Shown: piece after piece, positions 14,091 through 39,431 of the stretch
Position numbering within the stretch: the first letter of the stretch is position 1
Layout: the number at the start of each line of letters is the position of its first letter
Source: Spinellus fusiger
Lineage: Eukaryota > Mucoromycota > Mucoromycetes > Mucorales > Phycomycetaceae
Length of the DNA stretch: 64,000 nucleotides
NCBI GenBank assembly: GCA_025094145.1
Contig: JALLLS010000063.1
Coordinates: 124,001-188,000, forward strand
Direction of reading: 5' to 3'
Translations under genes and position numbers: made by a program
The notes under the pieces: model-generated
Told to the model about the DNA's origin: nothing
The model's database searches: none
The model's input: the letters and a program-made list of their open reading frames with translations, nothing else

Positions 14091-15704
14091 GAGGGTTTAT
14101 TTATTTTGTTAAAGAAGAGGGAATAAAGGAACAGCAGTGCATTCCGTCCAACAGAGAGAATGAGAGTAGGTAGTAGCGATAGTCCAGTGTTATTGTATAG
14201 GAGAGGAGAGAATCCTCACTGCAGAAATAAACACTGTCCTATTGTACTCTATAAAAGATAAAGTTAACTGACAAGACTTATGGCCTCAGTGGCTTCTATG
14301 CCATGGCGTGATAGCGTCGATCTCTTTGTGTTGCCTAATAGAATAAAGTATTACGCGGAGAAGGCGGACTCATTTACCATCAATAACATGTATAAACTCA
14401 CCTTATCTAAATATATGAAGTCTCCAGAAAATAACAGCTATAGGCTTTCTTTCATAATAGCCACTTTCTTTCATTGTCATTGGGCAGAAGGTGGCGACTA
14501 GAAGGGATTGGACTAGAATAAGAAATAGCAGGGATACTTGTCATTGGCAGTGAACACACTAATGGTAATATAATAGAACTATAAAAGCAACTATGCCATT
14601 TTATTGGCTGATTTTCTGTTGAAGAAGACTGTACACCTCACAGTGAAAAGTACTCCAGGCTCACCATTCTTTAGTCATCACCACGTGATATGGCCTCACG
14701 GAATATTGGCTGTCTTAAGCTTATATCCCTTGTGCAAAAAATAAAATAATCAACACCCATGACAAAGGCACTACCATTGTTTGTTCAATTTAATTAACAG
14801 TAAATAGGCATTGGAATAGAAAACAGTCTATAGTGATTATAAAAAGACATTTCTTCTGCAAACACAAAATACTCTCAACACAATATGTTACAACAATCAT
14901 AAAGGCATTAGCAAGGATCTCAATAAACAGTATGCTTGGATGAGATTGTATTAATTGGTATTAAATTATTGAAATAGGCACTGTTTTATATTTTATATAT
15001 TGTACTCTATTGTACTCTATTGTACTCTATTGTACTCTATTGTACTCTAAATATAAATAAATAAATAAAAATAAGAAGTTAGCGATGAGCAAATCGTAAA
15101 AAAAAAAAACATCCACAAGTGGGATTTAAATTCTCTTGGATTTGTGATATAGCTTCGGCTATAGTATGGATAGTCGACGTTTTGCCATGCATGCACGGTG
15201 TTGGAGGTTCAGGAGATAAAAGTAGCTCTAGCTAACAACACAATGAAACAGTGTATAAAAACCACATTATTTGAACATTCAATAAAATATCAACCTTTTT
15301 GTTAACGTTAAGTATCGTTGGAACTATTGAGAGAAGCAAGGATTGCTTAAAGAATAGTTGCCTAGTTACCCGTTGTGTTCAAATCGTGTGTTGTGTCCCC
15401 GCTCCCGTACCCCTTGGATTCCCTTTTGCCAGACTTTGTGTCAAAACTCTATTTCGTCGTTCCTGCTAGAGATCGAAATACTTCTAATTCATCTCTCTAG
15501 TAGTCCTGTTGATAACCATAGTGCCCTTTATTACAGATTCCCAGAACTCACATATACCAAGGAAGGAAAGGTAAATCTACTGCTAATATTATTTAAAAAA
15601 TAAAACACTTTAGTTTACAGTCTATCTATCTTTATTGTTATTGTTACTATGTTTAATCCATAATAAAATGCCAACACCTTAACACACTGTTTATATCAAA
15701 TGTA
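14091..15704. other. Intergenic, repeats only
   Basis: No convincing coding region. The ORFs at 14280-14501 and 15358-15603 have no recognisable features. The region holds the decamer repeat at 15001 and a tRNA-like or SINE-like segment near 15107-15235. Confidence 0.45.
15001..15049 (+). repeat. Tandem repeat, TGTACTCTAT x5
   Basis: Five copies of a 10-bp unit, four perfect and the last changed at its end, followed by an AAAT-type run. Confidence 0.95.
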
Positions 15705-17394
15705 CAGTATTTTTACTTAGTTTTCGGACCTTTTCAAAAAAAATTCAGATGTTCTCTTCTTTTTTGGACGATTTCCATTTTAATTTCAGACGTTTACAAA
15801 AGGAAATTCAGACAATTCCAATTTTTTATTGGACGAGTTTCTTTTATCTTCAGACTTTTTCCTTACTTAATTTAGACAAACTCTTATTTCAGAGAAGCAG
15901 TAAATTTCATCAACCTATTTCATTATCTCCTTGAACTTCACATTTATATTTTTTTTTTTAAAAAAACTGAACTAAATAAAAAGATGGGCTATATTAAATA
16001 CCAACCATTAGAAGATGCATAATTGACAGAAGATACTGATGAAGAGATGGAATTGGAGACTACAGCAACTGAGTACGGCAATATTGAGATGATTATAGAT
16101 TTCGACGTGATGTTGCAAAATCAAACAACACAAATGGCAGAAGCTATGGATAATATTGTTGAGGACATGGGAGCTGTATCATTATATCAGTCAAACAGAT
16201 ATAAGAAATATACCCAAGATCAGATAGAACGGTTTATCCGTGTAAAGCAAGAAGAGGGCATGTCAGTCCCAAAAGCCGCTATGCTGTGCGGTATTCCTCG
16301 AAGCACTGCATATGAATTAATAAATGAATTCAATGTTAGTAACGGCACTGTTCTGCCTGGAAACAATCCAAGAAAAACGAACAACAAACCAAAGAAACTG
16401 TTCCCTCAACACTCGGCATTTCTAGTCGAACTCTTTGATAAAAATCCGTCGATCGTCCTTGAAGAAGCAAGATTAAAGTTGTGTGAGGCGTTTCCTGGGC
16501 TGGAAGTCTCTGTCAGTGGGCTTTATAAGCATATCGTTGAAAAATGTGCTTTATCGTTAAAGCAAGCAACGAAATATACAGCTAAACGAGATGCACCTAG
16601 GACTATCAAACTTCGTTTTGCTATCATTGCTCAATGGAAAGCAGCTGGCGTTGATTATCAAAATAATTGTGTATTCGTCGATGAAGCCGGATTCCACACT
16701 CAAATGATTAGAGGTCGTGCATGGTCAAAGAAATGTGATCCAGCAATTGTGAAAGTTCATACACAAAAGGGCGTTAATATAAGCATTGTTGGCTGTATTG
16801 CTTCATTTGATGTTATAAACTTTTCAAAAGTTGAGCCTTTGAAAAAAACAGACGCAGAAAAAATTGAAAAGGAATTTCCCCAGCAACACACAAGCAAGAA
16901 AAGAAAAGCCGCTACCCAAGATATATCAAAGTTGAAACAACTTCCAAAAGGCACTACAGCTTACCACATTGTAAAATTTATAGAATCTGTAATGGATGTT
17001 TTGGATAAGCATAACAAAAAGGGCGTATTTATAGTTTTAGATAACTGTAGAATTCATCATTCTCGCTACGTTATCGATGCCATTAACAATAGAGGTTACA
17101 GACCTCTTTTTATGCCACCTTACTCACCTTTTTTGAACCCCATCGAAGAATGCTGGTCAAAAATCAAAAAGCTTATCAGAAGAAATCCTCTAGATAAATC
17201 AGACACACTTACTCCACGAATTACAGAATCTTTTAACCAGATTACTTTAGAAGATTGTAAAGGATGGGTAAGACATGCTGAAACCTATTGGGATAGATGT
17301 CTTTCTAATGAGATTAAATTAAAATAGTCTGAATTTCCTTTCGTAAACGTCTGAATTTTTTTTGAAAAGGTCCGAAAACCAAGTAAAAATACTG
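15705..17394 (+). mobile_element. IS630/Tc1-type transposon, near-intact, 1690 bp
   Basis: Both ends start with CAGTATTTTTACTT and continue as an inverted repeat of about 46 bp with two mismatches. TA lies immediately outside each end (15703-15704 and 17395-17396), the target duplication of this superfamily. Subterminal copies of CAGACGTTTAC are found inside both ends and may be transposase binding sites. It carries one long transposase ORF. It is the best-preserved transposon in the window. Confidence 0.93.
16047..17327 (+). CDS. DDE transposase, IS630/Tc1 superfamily
   Basis: Cut-and-paste transposase acting on the ends at 15705 and 17394. From the ATG at 16047 the product is about 426 aa. 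A helix-turn-helix region (RFIRVKQEEGMSVPKAAMLC) is followed by a second winged HTH (SVSGLYKHIVEK). The catalytic triad is visible: Asp in FVDEAGFHT, Asp in IVLDNCRIHHS, Glu in FLNPIEECWSKIK, with 34 residues between the last two (DD34E type). A basic KKRK stretch may be a nuclear signal. The reading frame is open upstream to TTG 16023. Just before it, an in-frame TAA at 16020-16022 follows a short ATG-started segment from 15984 (12 codons). The original start may therefore have been at 15984, lost by a single nonsense change; the downstream ATG would still give all domains. Confidence 0.9.
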   Translation: MELETTATEYGNIEMIIDFDVMLQNQTTQMAEAMDNIVEDMGAVSLYQSNRYKKYTQDQIERFIRVKQEEGMSVPKAAMLCGIPRSTAYELINEFNVSNGTVLPGNNPRKTNNKPKKLFPQHSAFLVELFDKNPSIVLEEARLKLCEAFPGLEVSVSGLYKHIVEKCALSLKQATKYTAKRDAPRTIKLRFAIIAQWKAAGVDYQNNCVFVDEAGFHTQMIRGRAWSKKCDPAIVKVHTQKGVNISIVGCIASFDVINFSKVEPLKKTDAEKIEKEFPQQHTSKKRKAATQDISKLKQLPKGTTAYHIVKFIESVMDVLDKHNKKGVFIVLDNCRIHHSRYVIDAINNRGYRPLFMPPYSPFLNPIEECWSKIKKLIRRNPLDKSDTLTPRITESFNQITLEDCKGWVRHAETYWDRCLSNEIKLK

Positions 17395-17443
17395 TAGAAA
17401 GTATGCGCTTAGTTGGTTAAAACCCAGCCTACCTGGTAGGCTA

Positions 17444-18692
17444 CACACCCAAAGATTTTTTTGACCTTTAAGCGGTGATACCTCCTTCCTTTTACGTCTA
17501 AAAATATCTTGCATTTTATGGCTCTGTGTTTAAAATCAAAGGTTTGTAAGTATCTAAATAATTGTTTCTTTTTGTGGATACCTCAATATCAAATTGTATT
17601 ATCAATAAAATATATTGTTTATGAATAAAATTGTTTATGAATAAAATTGTTTATTGTAATACTATAGCTAATACTATATTATGTACTATAGCTACGGCCT
17701 AAGTGCATTCTCTCATAGCAATAGAATATACACCCTAAAAGTCTTATGCTTTATTATAGGTAGATAGATAAATATGCCTTGGAGTAGACCCTAGACAGCA
17801 TTGACCTTCTAGAAGACCATCTGAGACTAACTTGAAAGGAGTCTTTACTTGCCTAATAACAATACATTGAGTGCCTTGTGGAATACAATGAACTTAAACC
17901 CAGATGAAGACACTGCTTACCTTTTTATCACTAGAATAGTCCTTGATAGTGTCTATCACCTCCTTCTATTTTTTGTTTGTTAATAATAGTACATTACCTT
18001 TTTCAGTTATGCTTATCTTGACAAGTACTTGAGCGTTAAGTTGTATGGACAGTGTACGAGATAGCAAAAAGAGGGGGTATATCAAAACAAATAATATTTC
18101 ATATATTATTCTGGTGATCTATTACACTTTAACCTCAACTCATAAAATCTACAAGTCAAAATTCACAAGTCAAACAATTCACACTTTATTTGGCTTGAGC
18201 CTAAAGCCCAGTATTAGAAATAATACTTTGTAATCATTAAGCACCATTGTTAATACCAGTTACAATAAGATAACTGAGGTGATTATAGATAGTGAGTCAA
18301 TAAATGAATACACTGTTCTCAATGTAAGTTTGGTTCTATTTTATGGACAATGACCACTAGAGTTAACTCTGTGTGTGTCTTATAAACATCTTTCTTAAGC
18401 AGTGTCATACTGCAAATACTATGGGCTTATAGTTAACACATTATGTTAAACAATAAATGCAGTGACTGAGTTGTAATATTAAGTGGATTCTTGTTCTATT
18501 TCTTGTCTTTACAGCCAATTCTATACTTTCTAATTGCAAAGTTAATAATGATTGCTTAAACAGGCAAGTAGAGTTTAAAATAGTTCATTTAGACAGCGAA
18601 AAAGCATCTTTAAACACATTAGCCAATCATAAGAATATTGCGATTTTATTCTCAGGATATTTACTTGTATATCCCAAAAATCTCCTCGTGTG
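17444..18692 (+). mobile_element. Non-autonomous TIR element X, copy 1 (palindrome left arm)
   Basis: Starts CACACCC and ends ...AATCTCCTCGTGTG, bounded by TA on both sides (17442-17443 and 18693-18694). The same layout recurs inverted at 20385-21603 and as a solo copy at 24251-25508, where the inverted repeat CACACCAGGAGATTTTT is clearest. About 1.25 kb with no convincing ORF; the 62-aa ORF at 18045-18233 is not conserved in the third copy. Likely a large MITE-like element mobilised by a TA-targeting transposase. Confidence 0.8.
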
Positions 18693-18876
18693 TAGAAGTT
18701 CACACTTTATTCTCTTACTCTTACTTCCCTCTCATCAGCAAAACAATGGTTGTCATAACAAGAGAGCAGGCAATCTGCATGTTTTATTGCGAAGAGTATA
18801 ATGAAACCAATGTTGAGAATTTGACCAAGGAAGTTGATGCTATAAAGAATGTCGACATTTGCTATTCTGACGATCC
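17561..18876. repeat. Left arm of 1316-bp inverted repeat
   Basis: Pairs with 20201-21516: position x pairs with 39077 minus x. Several long blocks compared by eye match exactly, and ORF coordinates in both arms obey the same rule with no indel. The arm comprises most of element X and the first 183 bp beyond it, including the start of the resolvase-like gene. The spacer is 1324 bp. Confidence 0.93.
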
Positions 18877-20058
18877 GTCAGCTCCAGTTCTACTTTGCAC
18901 GCGGACTATCTTTCAAAACCCTTTCAAAATACATAAGTACCAGAAAAGAGATTTATTAGAAGTGGACGTTGAAAATACAAATGAAGCACTTAAAATTCGT
19001 AAATATTAGCAAGTTACGTTTGGTGTGCTAATATAGAGCTATTTCTTAGACAATGCCATAGAACTAGTTCAATTCCTGAACATAGTATACATACCCTTTG
19101 ACCCCAACAATAATGAAGTCTATGAAAACAAATGTCTTACATTGAATGATATTCTTGCTGTTGTTTTGAAATACTCTGACTTGTTTGAAGACAAATCTGC
19201 TATCGGGTTTGGAAAGTGGTGTTCCAACAAAAAAGTCAATTTCATGAAAAGCGCCATAAAAAGGAGAGTCAGAATATTAAGTAAAACGGGTCCGTTCCTT
19301 ATTTGCAGTGAAAGAAGAATTCTTCAGTAAGTCATATCTGTTATTACTTTTTTTATCTCTATTTCTGATTTTATTCACGCAAAATATTAGACAATATTAT
19401 CAAAGACATTACTGAATACCGTGAAGAATATCAAGAACATATCCAAAAACTAAAAAAAGAAAACCATAATGTCATAGGATATGCAAGAAAGTCAAAAGAA
19501 GTTGATGACAAAAACAGAACACGGCTAATTCAACTCATATGTGACAGACTGAGAGAAAGATCTTTGGTCGATAAATTGTTTGTTTCAGTTTGCTCAAATG
19601 CAAACCATCCTATCTCTGAGAGGGATGTAAAAGTAGACAAAAGAATTATTGAAAAACTGGATGTAGATGGGAACACACAAGGTAAGAACACTAATGTCAA
19701 TTCAATTTTCTATTTCTCCATATCAATTATATGAGTCCCTCCTCTCCTTTTTTTTCTTAGAAATGTTGCAATATATTTCTACCAACAAAAAATATGTCTT
19801 GTAGTGTTGGATTATGCAGGTCTGACAACAGACCCAAATGATTTAAAAAAGTTTTTAAAGTAAGCTTTGAAAAATATGGTTAATTTAAAGAAAATACTAA
19901 AAACTCCTTTTAGGGCCAACAAGAACATTGAGAAGGTTATCGTTGACAATTTGCCTCAAAATAACAAAATTGAGATATTTGAAAAAGAAATATTAAACAA
20001 TCCCTCAAGACTAGAAGTATTTAGATGTAGAGCAAGTACGTGTCAACGCTCAAAATAA
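18746..20058 (+). pseudogene. Resolvase-like gene of mobile origin, five exons, frame-broken
   Basis: Exon blocks: 18746-18990 (VVITREQAICMFYCEEYNE), about 19041-19329, 19391-19680, 19762-19860 and 19916-20058, separated by short GT-AG introns. Exon 3 has IGYARKSKEVDDKNRTRLIQ, an arrangement like the Y-x-R-x-S catalytic start of small serine recombinases. Later come SNANHPISERDVKV and LDYAGLTTDPNDLKKF. The arginines normally following the LDRL-type motif are absent, so recombinase identity is inference. Two breaks are seen: exons 2 and 3 do not join in phase, and one A seems to be missing near 19795, giving a stop at 19803. The last exon ends TCQRSK. The gene lies entirely between two inverted X elements. 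Confidence 0.6.
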
Positions 20059-20085
20059 TTTATTAATTTTTATAAATAAACGCCA

Positions 20086-20331
20086 TCATAAAGTTTTAGT
20101 GTTACTTTCTATAATCACTTCTTTTTCTATTTCTGCAGGATACAGATGATATCTTAGTTTGGTCCTCATGGTTTGGAGGGAACATAAAGTGGGCATAAAT
20201 GGATCGTCAGAATAGCAAATGTCGACATTCTTTATAGCATCAACTTCCTTGGTCAAATTCTCAACATTGGTTTCATTATACTCTTCGCAATAAAACATGC
20301 AGATTGCCTGCTCTCTTGTTATGACAACCAT
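20086..20331 (-). pseudogene. Truncated second copy of the resolvase-like gene
   Basis: Starts with the same 43 codons as the plus-strand copy (ATG at 20331) because they lie in the identical palindrome arm. It then diverges at 20200. The diverged part still resembles the first copy weakly (DDPFMPTLCS against DDPSAPVLLC; both continue with a charged segment of similar length). It stops at 20086 with no further exons. This suggests a second family member in tail-to-tail orientation, not a simple duplication of the first. Confidence 0.55.
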
Positions 20332-21516
20332 TGTTTTGCTGATGAGAGGGAAGTAAGAGTAAGAGAATAAAGTGTGAACTTCTACACACGAGGAGATTTT
20401 TGGGATATACAAGTAAATATCCTGAGAATAAAATCGCAATATTCTTATGATTGGCTAATGTGTTTAAAGATGCTTTTTCGCTGTCTAAATGAACTATTTT
20501 AAACTCTACTTGCCTGTTTAAGCAATCATTATTAACTTTGCAATTAGAAAGTATAGAATTGGCTGTAAAGACAAGAAATAGAACAAGAATCCACTTAATA
20601 TTACAACTCAGTCACTGCATTTATTGTTTAACATAATGTGTTAACTATAAGCCCATAGTATTTGCAGTATGACACTGCTTAAGAAAGATGTTTATAAGAC
20701 ACACACAGAGTTAACTCTAGTGGTCATTGTCCATAAAATAGAACCAAACTTACATTGAGAACAGTGTATTCATTTATTGACTCACTATCTATAATCACCT
20801 CAGTTATCTTATTGTAACTGGTATTAACAATGGTGCTTAATGATTACAAAGTATTATTTCTAATACTGGGCTTTAGGCTCAAGCCAAATAAAGTGTGAAT
20901 TGTTTGACTTGTGAATTTTGACTTGTAGATTTTATGAGTTGAGGTTAAAGTGTAATAGATCACCAGAATAATATATGAAATATTATTTGTTTTGATATAC
21001 CCCCTCTTTTTGCTATCTCGTACACTGTCCATACAACTTAACGCTCAAGTACTTGTCAAGATAAGCATAACTGAAAAAGGTAATGTACTATTATTAACAA
21101 ACAAAAAATAGAAGGAGGTGATAGACACTATCAAGGACTATTCTAGTGATAAAAAGGTAAGCAGTGTCTTCATCTGGGTTTAAGTTCATTGTATTCCACA
21201 AGGCACTCAATGTATTGTTATTAGGCAAGTAAAGACTCCTTTCAAGTTAGTCTCAGATGGTCTTCTAGAAGGTCAATGCTGTCTAGGGTCTACTCCAAGG
21301 CATATTTATCTATCTACCTATAATAAAGCATAAGACTTTTAGGGTGTATATTCTATTGCTATGAGAGAATGCACTTAGGCCGTAGCTATAGTACATAATA
21401 TAGTATTAGCTATAGTATTACAATAAACAATTTTATTCATAAACAATTTTATTCATAAACAATATATTTTATTGATAATACAATTTGATATTGAGGTATC
21501 CACAAAAAGAAACAAT
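20201..21516. repeat. Right arm of 1316-bp inverted repeat
   Basis: Reverse complement of 17561-18876, with sharp limits at both ends. Outside the outer limit the element X sequence continues but is diverged from the left arm. Confidence 0.93.
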
Positions 21517-21603
21517 AAATTAGATCTCCATAAAAGAGAATTGATTTGTATGGATGTAACAGGGAGATGTCATCGCTTAAAGGCCGGAAAATCTTTAGGT
21601 GTG
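20385..21603 (-). mobile_element. Non-autonomous TIR element X, copy 2 (palindrome right arm)
   Basis: Inverted copy of 17444-18692. Its outer end (ATCTTTAGGTGTG then TA at 21604-21605) is about 30 bp shorter than the left copy and diverged. It lies 26 bp from the thioesterase stop codon, so the insertion is right at the 3' end of that gene. Confidence 0.8.
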
Positions 21604-21629
21604 TATACTATGCTTCTTTCTATTACACT

Positions 21630-24245: not shown

Positions 24246-24250
24246 TGGTA

Positions 24251-25508
24251 CACACCAGGAGATTTTTTGGATATATAAGTAAATATTCTGAGAATAAAAT
24301 TGCAATATTCTTATGATTGGCTAATGTGTTTTAAAATGCTTTTTCGCTGTCTAAATGAACTATTTTAAACTCTACTTGCCTGTTTAAGCAATGGCTACTG
24401 ACTTTGTAATTAAAAAGTATAGAATTGGCTGTAAAGACAAGAAATAGAACAAGAATCACCCCAAAATTACAACTCAGTCACTGATATTCTTCTCTTAGCA
24501 TAATTTGTTATCCATAAGCCCACAGTATTTGCAGTATAACACTGCTTAAGAAAATATTTATTATAGGACACACGGAATTAACTCTAGTGGTCATTGTCCA
24601 TAAAATAGAACCAAACTTACTTATATTAAGAACAGTGTATTCATTTATTGACTAAATATCTATAATCACCTCAGTTATCTTATTGTAACTGGTATTAACA
24701 GTGGTGCTTAATGATAACAAGGTATTGTTTCTAATACTGGACTTTAGGCCCAAGACAAATAGAGTGTGAATTGTTTGACTTGTAAATTTGACTTGTGAGT
24801 TTGACTTGTGAATTTTGACTTGTGAATTTTATGTGGAGGCTAGTGAATGCATCACTAAAATAATAGATGAAATATTATTTGTTTTGATATTCCCCTCCTT
24901 TTGATATTTCACATACTGCACATACAACTTAACACCCAAGTACTTGTCAAGATGAGCATAACTGAGCAAGGTATTGTGCCATTATTAACAAAGAGAAACA
25001 ATAGGTGATAGACACTACTAAAGGCTATTCTAGTGATAAAAAGGTAAGCAGTGTCTTCATCTGGGCTTGAGCTCAATGTATTCCACAAGGCACTCATTGT
25101 ATTGTTATTAGGCAAGTAAAGACTCCTTTCAAGTCATTCTTAGGTGGTCTTCTATACTATCTAGGGTCTCTAGGGTATACTCCTGAGCATAGTTATCTAT
25201 CTCCCAAGAATAAATTACAAGGCTTTTAGGTTGTGGATTCTATTGCTATGAAGGAATACGCCTAGAGCAACAGTAGCTATAGTAATAGTATGTTATTAGC
25301 TACAGTATTACAATAAACAATTTCATTCATAAACAATATATTCTATTGATAATATAATTTAATATTGAGGTATCCACAAAAGAAAATAATAATTTAGATA
25401 CTTGCAAACCTTTGATTTTAAACACAGATCCATAAAAGGGCAAAATATTTTTAGACGTAAAAGGAAGGAGATACCACCGCTTAAAGGCCAGAAAAATCTC
25501 CTGGTGTG
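24251..25508 (-). mobile_element. Non-autonomous TIR element X, copy 3 (solo)
   Basis: 1258 bp with inverted ends CACACCAGGAGATTTTT and its reverse complement, TA on both sides (24249-24250 and 25509-25510). It is collinear with the palindrome arms but diverged by substitutions and small indels, so it is an older or independent insertion. Its outer 110 bp match the left palindrome arm better than the right. No coding capacity. Confidence 0.85.
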
Positions 25509-25510
25509 TA

Positions 25511-38046: not shown

Positions 38047-39431
38047 ATGACAAGCGACCCTGCCATTCATAGTCCACAGTCTCAGGGCACCAACAATTCA
38101 GCAGACACTCGCATACACCCTCTCTCGCCTTCCCTTTCCCATCCTGGCAATGAACAGAGCTCGCCTCTATTACAGCATATCTCTGACGACGTAACAACCA
38201 TCTTTGTGGTGGGATTTCCGGAAGATATGCAAGAAAGAGAATTCCAGAACATGTTTACCTTTTCTCGGGGATTTGAGGCAGCATCCTTAAAGTGGTACTG
38301 CAAAGAAGGCGAAGAAGAAGGTCCCAGTGCCAGTCTACTGAGTGTGGCGGGAAAAAAGCAAATGGTATGCATCTATAGATATCGCTATAAAAAAAACAAT
38401 GTCACTAGAGAATAGCAGCTACAGAGAATCCCATGCTGATGGCTGATCACTATGAATAGATTGGCTTTGCTAGGTTCCATACTCGGTTTGAGGCACTGGA
38501 AGCAGTCGAAGTCCTGACTGGTAAAAGAGTAGACATCGAGAAAGGACAAACACTAAAGGCAGAGATGGCAAAAAAGAACCTGCATGTAAATCGAGTGTCT
38601 GTCAGTGCCAACAACACCCTCCTGGCAGACAATCCATGGAAAAAAGACTATGACATCTTCTTGCCCTTGCCAAGTGATCTCTTGTCGCCTTCTGCTGATT
38701 ACAAAAATGATCCTTTCTTAGCAGACTTGGGTACAAGACCATCGACACCCGTGTTCAGTGACACATTCTTTGGGTTGCGTTCACAATCATTTGATGTACG
38801 TAGTCCAAGTGCATTTGGGATGCCTGCTCGAGCCTTTAGCCTTTATCCACCCGCACGCAAATCATTGCCGTGTATAGAAGACGAAACATTCAACTATCTT
38901 TCCAAATCAACACCTCTTTTGCAGGACCATAACAATCTAAACCATGGAGTATCCTACTTTGGAGACAATGATTATCTTTCTACCCGGCTTGGTTCCTTTT
39001 CTCTTGCTAGCTCTGGAGACTATGGCAATCACAGACCTCCTCTAAACACCTTAGTTGTAACAGGCAATCCAGCCGATCAAAACCCGCCCTGCAATACGTT
39101 GTACGTCGGCAATTTACCACCCAGCACGAGCGAAGAAGAACTCCGTCAGCTCTTCAATCAATGCTCCGGGTACAAGCGAATGTGTTTCCGTAACAAACCC
39201 CAGGGCCCAATGTGCTTTGTAGAGTTTGAAGATGTGGTGTATGCAACTCAGGCATTGTCAGAACTCCAGGGAAAATCACTTTCTAATTCTGTCAAGGGCG
39301 GCATTCGACTCTCATTTAGCAAAAACCCACTCTTTACCAAACCAAACAAGGACAGTCTGCCTTTCTACCACAAGCAGCTCAGGATGCCTGTCTTGGATCG
39401 TAAAGAACTCTTCTTTGATCCTCAGCTTTAA
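38047..39431 (+). CDS. WHI3: Whi3/Scw1-like RNA-binding protein with two RRMs
   Basis: Cytoplasmic mRNA-binding regulator; yeast Whi3 restrains G1 cyclin mRNA and S. pombe Scw1 affects cell wall and septation. Exons 38047-38364 and 38460-39431 give 429 aa. RRM1 (about 48-150) has [20 protein letters not shown] and, after the intron, [21 protein letters not shown]. The middle is Ser/Pro/Phe-rich, likely disordered. RRM2 (about 316-396) has [38 protein letters not shown] and [10 protein letters not shown], the typical Whi3-family second RRM with its LSFSKNPL end. The intron falls within RRM1 before RNP1. No polyQ region, unlike yeast Whi3. The name is by family; orthology is inferred. Confidence 0.9.

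What the first reader, a model, noticed from the sequence alone, without database searches (positions are those of the whole stretch)
17444..21603. Giant palindrome with a homogenised core: gene conversion between inverted transposon copies
Two arms of 1316 bp (17561-18876 and 20201-21516) appear identical and obey an exact mirror rule with no indel. Yet both copies of element X extend outward past the identical block and are clearly diverged there. On the inner side, the two resolvase-like gene copies also continue with weak but detectable similarity. A simple recent inverted duplication would not leave related-but-diverged sequence just outside sharp identity limits; gene conversion between older inverted copies would. 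Transcription across it could yield long hairpin RNA, a potential RNAi trigger in fungi that have Dicer.
Basis: partly seen in the sequence, partly recalled or inferred. Interest (0 to 1): 0.8.

Follow-up and report, generated by a model that had tools for sequence, protein, structure and literature searches.

The report
Mobile fungal palindrome with identical arms
A jumping-gene-like unit in a mould has two long mirror-image arms that stay letter-for-letter identical within a copy while different copies drift apart, which suggests that the arms keep copying each other.

Summary
Observation confirmed: 17561-18876 and 20201-21516 are an exact 1316-bp inverted repeat. The outer flanks are related but diverged; the inner relationship is supported by one of three protein tests and not by DNA. 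The source is Spinellus fusiger (Mucorales). The window copy is a truncated member of a larger unit. At two other loci each arm holds a Tc1/IS630-like transposon (M), a 1253-bp TA-flanked repeat (X) and the start of a serine-recombinase-like gene, and the palindrome ends exactly at M's outer end beside TA. The loci share the inner junction, so the palindrome predates their separation. Yet arms show 0 mismatches of 1316, 3191 and 3024 aligned sites within loci and 1.3-2.7% between loci. That is concerted evolution, best explained by arm-to-arm gene conversion. A 16-kb contig carries one locus with the element reversed between identical flanks, as crossover between arms would give (assembly effect not excluded). 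Two other gene pairs of the family have this layout, with identity ending near the same codon. New variant of a known kind.

The parts
15703..17396 (+). Element M: Tc1/IS630-like transposon, TA-CAGTATTTTTACTT...AAGTAAAAATACTG-TA; outer part of the left side. Absent on the right in this copy, present on both sides at C176 and C143
   Evidence: terminal repeats and TA on both sides; palindrome limits at C176 and C143 coincide with its outer end
16023..17327 (+). M transposase reading frame, 434 codons without a stop (listed start TTG), DDE_3 domain, D-34-E spacing
   Evidence: Pfam DDE_3 E 4.1e-22; spacing; Tc1-like homologues
17442..18694 (+). Repeat X, left copy: TA-CACACC...GTGTG-TA, 1253 bp, no long reading frame of its own; many copies in the genome
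   Evidence: consistent ends in many copies; ORF list
17561..18876 (+). Arm A of the exact inverted repeat
18746..20058 (+). Gene A: serine-recombinase-like gene with introns (exons about 18746-18998, 19050-19307, 19391-19681, 19761-19859, 19915-20058, model inferred); frame disrupted near 19800. Its first 131 nt lie in arm A
   Evidence: 84% identical to a 358-aa Rhizopus stolonifer protein; exon reading; alignment; fold of that relative
20086..20331 (-). Gene B: inverted N-terminal-only second copy; codons 1-43 identical to gene A and codon 44 cut by the junction, then a diverged in-frame tail
20201..21516 (-). Arm B of the exact inverted repeat
20383..21605 (-). Repeat X, right copy: identical to left X up to 21516; the outer ~80 bp (21526-21605) are a different, diverged X end

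Best explanation
This is the right-truncated copy of a composite Tc1/IS630-like transposon whose terminal inverted repeats have grown to about 3.2 kb. (1) Inferred: a serine-recombinase-like gene lay opposite an inverted, N-terminal-only copy of itself. (2) Inferred: X and M (order unknown) landed upstream of the gene at TA sites and were copied to the mirror position of the other arm. (3) Shown by anatomy: M is the outermost sequence on both sides at two loci, and the unit occurs at three loci with unrelated flanks, its five intact edges being M's outer end next to TA. Transposition as one unit is inferred from this. (4) Shown: the arms are identical within each locus while loci have diverged. 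The mechanism, gene conversion between arms with occasional crossover that inverts the element, is inferred from this and from the reversed isomer of the C143 locus. (5) Inferred: in the window copy, recombination between the right-arm X and a resident X, or a conversion tract ending in that X, accounts for the missing right M and the diverged X end.
For: Arms: 0 mismatches of 1316 (window), 0 of 3191 (C176), 0 of 3024 (C143, one small indel); between these loci 1.3-2.7%. Independent evolution since the shared junction would give about 17-35 differences for the window arms and 56-57 for C176 and C143 (from the between-locus counts; the Poisson values use 35, 57 and 56). C143's left arm also lacks 196 bp at its inner end (window 18695-18890), so the arms are two real sequences. 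FastTree groups the arms by locus, with support 1.000 on the two splits that carry a value (C85 left out). C176 limits are exactly TA|CAGTATTTTTACTT on both sides; the same for C143 and the window's left edge. The five outer flanks are unrelated (in one of ten comparisons, C176_L with C143_R, one of 100 shuffles did as well). C85 has the same flanks as C143 (563/563 and 1514/1514 identical) but the element reversed between them. Three other inverted X neighbour pairs are 100%, 100% and 98.4% alike, while 23 of 41 X copies have a best relative of only 86-93%. Two further inverted gene pairs have near-identical 5' ends: C132 387 bp at 100%, C121 176 bp at 98.9%.
Against: Not every inverted neighbour is homogenised: X pieces at C127 (L040) are 79-86% alike, and window X 17442 against 24249 is 83.8%. 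M frames in the complete composites are interrupted, so present mobility is not shown. C85 differs from C143 by small gaps concentrated in its left arm and loop (15 and 15 events, against 2 in the right arm) and its own arms differ by 7 mismatches and 12 indel events; it may be a poorly polished contig, so the inversion could be an assembly effect. TA is too short to prove unit transposition. The X-only pairs could be recent local transpositions.
Confidence: 0.72

Rival explanations
1. Recent inverted duplication (fold-back template switch) formed the palindrome, and the arms are identical only because they are young.
For: A fold-back duplication gives perfect arms and a sharp inner limit; arms show no mismatch at all three loci.
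Against: The inner junction is the same at C158 and C176, and at C143 as seen from its right arm (its left arm has lost that end), so one event made it. The loci have since diverged by 1.3-2.7% plus indels, yet the arms show 0 mismatches. The junction keeps the reading frame at a homologous codon of a gene copy whose tail resembles the family in one of three tests.
Confidence: 0.1
2. In the window, the sharp outer limit comes from a crossover or deletion between the right-arm X and a downstream resident X in the same orientation, not from a conversion tract edge.
For: C176 and C143 keep M on both sides, and the genome search with M lists no M piece on C158 right of the element. The outer X end matches the general X family at 76-93% (35 other matches). 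Another X in the same orientation lies at 24249-25510.
Against: A conversion tract ending in X predicts the same sequence; nothing here separates the two.
Confidence: 0.5
3. Assembly artefact: arms are collapsed or mirrored by the assembler.
For: Perfect identity over kilobases; the C85 contig duplicates the C143 locus in reverse with many small gaps.
Against: Arms are separated by unique loops; C143's left arm lacks 196 bp that its right arm has; the structure is assembled at three loci with different flanks; the C132 and C121 gene pairs have different tails beyond the identical part.
Confidence: 0.07
4. Local transposition, not conversion, made the identical X pairs elsewhere (C132, C120, C135).
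For: At C132 and C120 the identical parts end at the X ends and the flanks differ; Tc1-type elements are known to hop locally (recalled).
Against: Among the 41 copies compared, the only near-identical distant pairs are C99/C146 and C174/C76, which may be assembly or segmental duplicates; the three pairs are all inverted.
Confidence: 0.4

Closest known systems
Palindromes of the human Y chromosome kept alike by gene conversion (P6: PMC3723533, abstract and section list seen)
   Same: Inverted arms over 99.9% alike through conversion, with rare inversion
   Different: Here the palindrome is a small transposon-bounded unit repeated at several loci, in a fungus
Foldback-type transposons such as Galileo and Tetris (PMC2775673, PMC3573991, PMC4079207: starts of abstracts in the listing; of PMC2775673 also one reference-list passage)
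   Same: DNA transposons with long terminal inverted repeats; recombination involving them
   Different: Galileo is placed in the P-element group; here the ends are Tc1/IS630-like and the arms hold a second repeat and the start of a gene
Composite transposons (definition in passages of PMC9977792)
   Same: Two transposon copies at the ends of a unit carrying other DNA
   Different: Eukaryotic Tc1-like ends; arms extend beyond the transposon copies and stay identical
IS inversions by recombination between terminal repeats in Wolbachia (PMC3004938, abstract)
   Same: Element inverted through its own terminal repeats
   Different: Bacterial IS; here kilobase arms
Serine recombinases, including IS607-like TnpA and small resolvases
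   Same: C-terminal half of the cargo protein has their catalytic-domain fold and a GY(A)RKS motif
   Different: Long N-terminal half of its own; no convincing Pfam match; activity unknown

Membership tests
Tc1/mariner-IS630 (element M) | TA target duplication and inverted terminal repeats | tested here: met
   TA at both ends of window M, of both composites and of five solo copies; a repeat in C143's flank holds an uninterrupted sequence much like the C127 insertion site (read by eye)
Tc1/mariner-IS630 (element M) | DDE transposase with D-34-E spacing | tested here: met
   PF13358 E 4.1e-22; 34 residues between second D and E
Composite transposon | Two terminal element copies with the DNA between them move as one unit | tested here: inconclusive
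   Same unit at three loci with unrelated flanks and edges at M ends; movement not observed and no empty site of the unit tested
Foldback-type element | Very long terminal inverted repeats | tested here: met
   3191-bp arms at C176
Foldback-type element | Internal tandem repeats in the arms | not tested
   No tandem-repeat finder was run; one search happened to list one 16-bp-period repeat at 21423-21463
Conversion-homogenised palindrome | Arms more alike within a locus than between loci that share the junction | tested here: met
   0 mismatches within, 1.3-2.7% between, for C158, C176, C143; tree
Conversion-homogenised palindrome | Inversion isomers | tested here: inconclusive
   C85 against C143, but C85 may be a low-quality contig
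Serine recombinase (cargo gene) | Catalytic-domain fold | tested here: met
Serine recombinase (cargo gene) | Nucleophilic serine and neighbouring arginine | tested here: met
   R211 and S213 invariant in 13 of 13 rows (12 database proteins and my own reading) and in 90% or more of 24; equivalence to the resolvase serine is recalled
Serine recombinase (cargo gene) | Recombination activity | not testable with these tools
   Needs an assay; gene A in the window has a disrupted frame

The most novel reading that the evidence does not exclude
The serine-recombinase-like gene family lies in invertible segments that it flips itself. Its body sits between inverted repeats that contain its own start (to codon 44-49). 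Three separate gene pairs share this layout with inner limits at nt 131, 141 and 147 from the ATG, and one locus is assembled in both orientations. Flipping would connect the gene to one or the other outer promoter region (at C121 these differ beyond -29). This would be a DNA-inversion switch in a fungus, later captured by a Tc1-type transposon. The plainer view is that conversion stops where paralogues stop resembling each other: residues 1-49 average 48.3% identity in the family, residues 50-86 only 24.7%.
Probability: 0.07. Interest if true: 0.85.

Novelty: new variant of a known kind. Interest (0 to 1): 0.5.

Why it matters
It is a compact natural test of gene conversion: the same palindrome at three loci of one genome, with no arm mismatches within loci and 1.3-2.7% between loci. 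Rates, tract ends and crossover could be measured directly in a fungus (Mucorales grow as haploids; recalled). It also suggests how a Tc1-type element may acquire very long terminal repeats, by copying nested insertions from one arm to the other. The recurrent inverted layout of a recombinase-like gene family is a specific, testable oddity.

Tried and rejected
An early reading took the stop at 20196-20198 as the end of gene A. Homologues show that it ends ...QRSK at 20058, so this was dropped. DNA-level inner homology: negative. Profile-HMM and anchored tests of gene B's tail: not significant. Rfam at gathering threshold and tRNA scans of the window: no hits. Pfam on the cargo gene: 0 families for the spliced 267 aa, and over 24 relatives no family shown matched more than 2 members (25 of 32 families shown). 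PDB sequence search: no serine recombinase among 3 weak hits. Searching both outer flanks of the window copy gave, besides the locus itself, only repeat-family matches (the latter capped at 40). The C132 X-pair loop holds a decayed Tc1-like transposase frame (my reading of the translation, no database search). Papers: 'Spinellus fusiger' + 'genome', 0 papers. Searches for fungal, Tc1, composite or long-repeat palindromes showed no description of this element, but only listings were seen: 2 of 2, 20 of 120, 12 of 38, 10 of 28 and 10 of 50 papers. Searches were also seen as listings; passages of PMC3627910 were not used. Only open-licence PMC is held.

Full report
WHAT IS THERE. The mirror block is exact: 17561-18876 against 20201-21516, 1316 of 1316 bases. 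The window is contig C158:124001-188000 of a 38-Mb, 197-contig genome. A protein encoded at 38565-39428 is 100% identical to part of a Spinellus fusiger protein on a 209,572-base contig, the length of C158, so the source is Spinellus fusiger, Mucorales.

ANATOMY. From the left: M (15703-17396), a Tc1/IS630-like transposon with terminal repeats CAGTATTTTTACTT, TA on both sides, a DDE_3 transposase frame and D-34-E spacing. Then X (17442-18694), a 1253-bp repeat bounded by TA-CACACC...GTGTG-TA whose copies recur across the genome (45 matches listed with the arm as query, a lower bound). Then gene A from ATG 18746 to 20058, with introns and a disrupted frame. Its best relative is a 358-aa Rhizopus stolonifer protein at 84% identity; 22 of the 25 homologues found carry an organism name, all genera that I place in Mucorales from memory. 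Then an inverted N-terminal-only copy B (ATG at 20331, minus strand), then X again in reverse. The outermost ~80 bp of the right X (21526-21605) are another X end: they match the general X family at 76-93%.

THE LARGER UNIT. The same structure lies at C176 and C143, and there both sides extend through M. At C176 the arms are 3191 bp with no difference and end exactly at TA|CAGTATTTTTACTT; C143 ends the same way. The five available outer flanks are unrelated to one another; in one of ten comparisons (C176_L with C143_R) one of 100 shuffles did as well as the observed score. The unit therefore looks like M-X-gene-loop-X-M dispersed as a composite transposon. Movement itself was not observed, M frames in the complete composites are interrupted (longest stop-free stretch 281 codons at C176, 315 at C143), and TA is too short to prove a unit insertion.

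CONCERTED EVOLUTION. The inner limit is the same at C158 and C176, and at C143 as seen from its right arm; C143's left arm lacks 196 bp there (window 18695-18890). So the palindrome predates the separation of the loci. Within loci the arms show 0 of 1316 (window), 0 of 3191 (C176) and 0 of 3024 (C143, with one small indel) mismatches. Between these loci the arms differ by 1.3-2.7% plus 4-11 indel events. Independent evolution would predict about 17-35 differences for the window's arms and 56-57 for the others. FastTree groups arms by locus, with support 1.000 on the two splits that carry a value (C85 left out). C85 arms differ from each other by 7 mismatches and 12 indel events; I treat C85 as an alternative contig of the C143 locus and left it out of these counts.

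INVERSION. C85 and C143 have identical flanks (563/563 and 1514/1514), but the element between them is reversed: the whole C143 element against the reverse complement of the C85 element shows 2 mismatches and 39 gap bases in 9.2 kb. That is the product expected from crossover between the arms. The gaps, mostly in C85's left arm and loop, suggest a poorly polished contig, so an assembly effect is not excluded.

RECURRENCE. Gene-family matches showed inverted 5' ends at C121 (733 kb and a second copy at 745 kb, 12,109 bp apart) and C132. At C132 the inverted repeat is 387 bp, 100% identical, from -246 to +141 of the ATG; at C121 (733-kb copy) it is 176 bp, 98.9%, from -29 to +147. In the window it runs to +131. 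Beyond the limit the two tails are diverged. The C121 tails score 7.0 and 6.9 bits against the family profile (best of 300 shuffles of the window's B tail 5.5); the C132 tails were compared by eye only. Five further N-terminal matches (C64, C1, C68, C57, C129) have no listed inverted partner. The shared limit is explained, at least in part, by conservation: mean family identity 48.3% for residues 1-49 and 24.7% for 50-86.

REPEAT X AS CONTROL. Of 41 X copies compared, 23 have a best relative at 86-93% and 18 above 97%. The 18 are the composite copies (8, C85's two included), three inverted neighbour pairs (C132, C120, C135; 6) and two distant pairs (C99/C146, C174/C76; 4). Among neighbouring X pairs in the stretches scanned, inverted pairs at C120, C132, C135, C143, C176 and the window arms are 98.4-100% alike; inverted pieces at C127 (79-86%) and window 17442/24249 (83.8%) are not; the one direct pair is 83.3%. 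So homogenisation is frequent but not universal.

READING. Gene conversion between the arms of a mobile palindrome, with occasional inversion, fits best. The window copy is a truncated member, and its outer limit is as well explained by X-X recombination as by a conversion edge.

Noticed in passing
window:18746-20058 and 16023-17327: The cargo protein is 84% identical to a Rhizopus stolonifer protein (and 75% to a Rhizopus arrhizus one over half its length), while the other named relatives are 31-53% and Spinellus is in another family. A 251-aa Rhizopus arrhizus relative of the M transposase is 82% identical over 58% of the query. Horizontal transfer between Mucorales is possible.
   Followed up: no
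L007/L003 (C143:227383-229043): A 1.65-kb element with ends TA-CACTATTTTCACTT...AAGTGAAAATAGTG-TA sits inside the gene at C143 and C85; a decayed element with a similar end lies in the C132 X-pair loop.
   Followed up: partly
G000:C121:733037-735200 and 745146-747309: The inverted gene pair at C121 is itself present twice, the four N-terminal matches offset by 12,109 bp (coordinates).
   Followed up: no
L009 (C99) and L010 (C146): X there is flanked on both sides by inverted copies of window 17401-17438, so it sits inside another small palindrome; the window keeps only the left half before its X.
   Followed up: partly
window:15136-15540 and L054:494-1000: High-copy repeats lie beside the element: about 400 bp left of the window copy (81-94% in other listed copies) and about 500 bp right of C143 (86-91%); both lists stop at 40 matches.
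   Followed up: no
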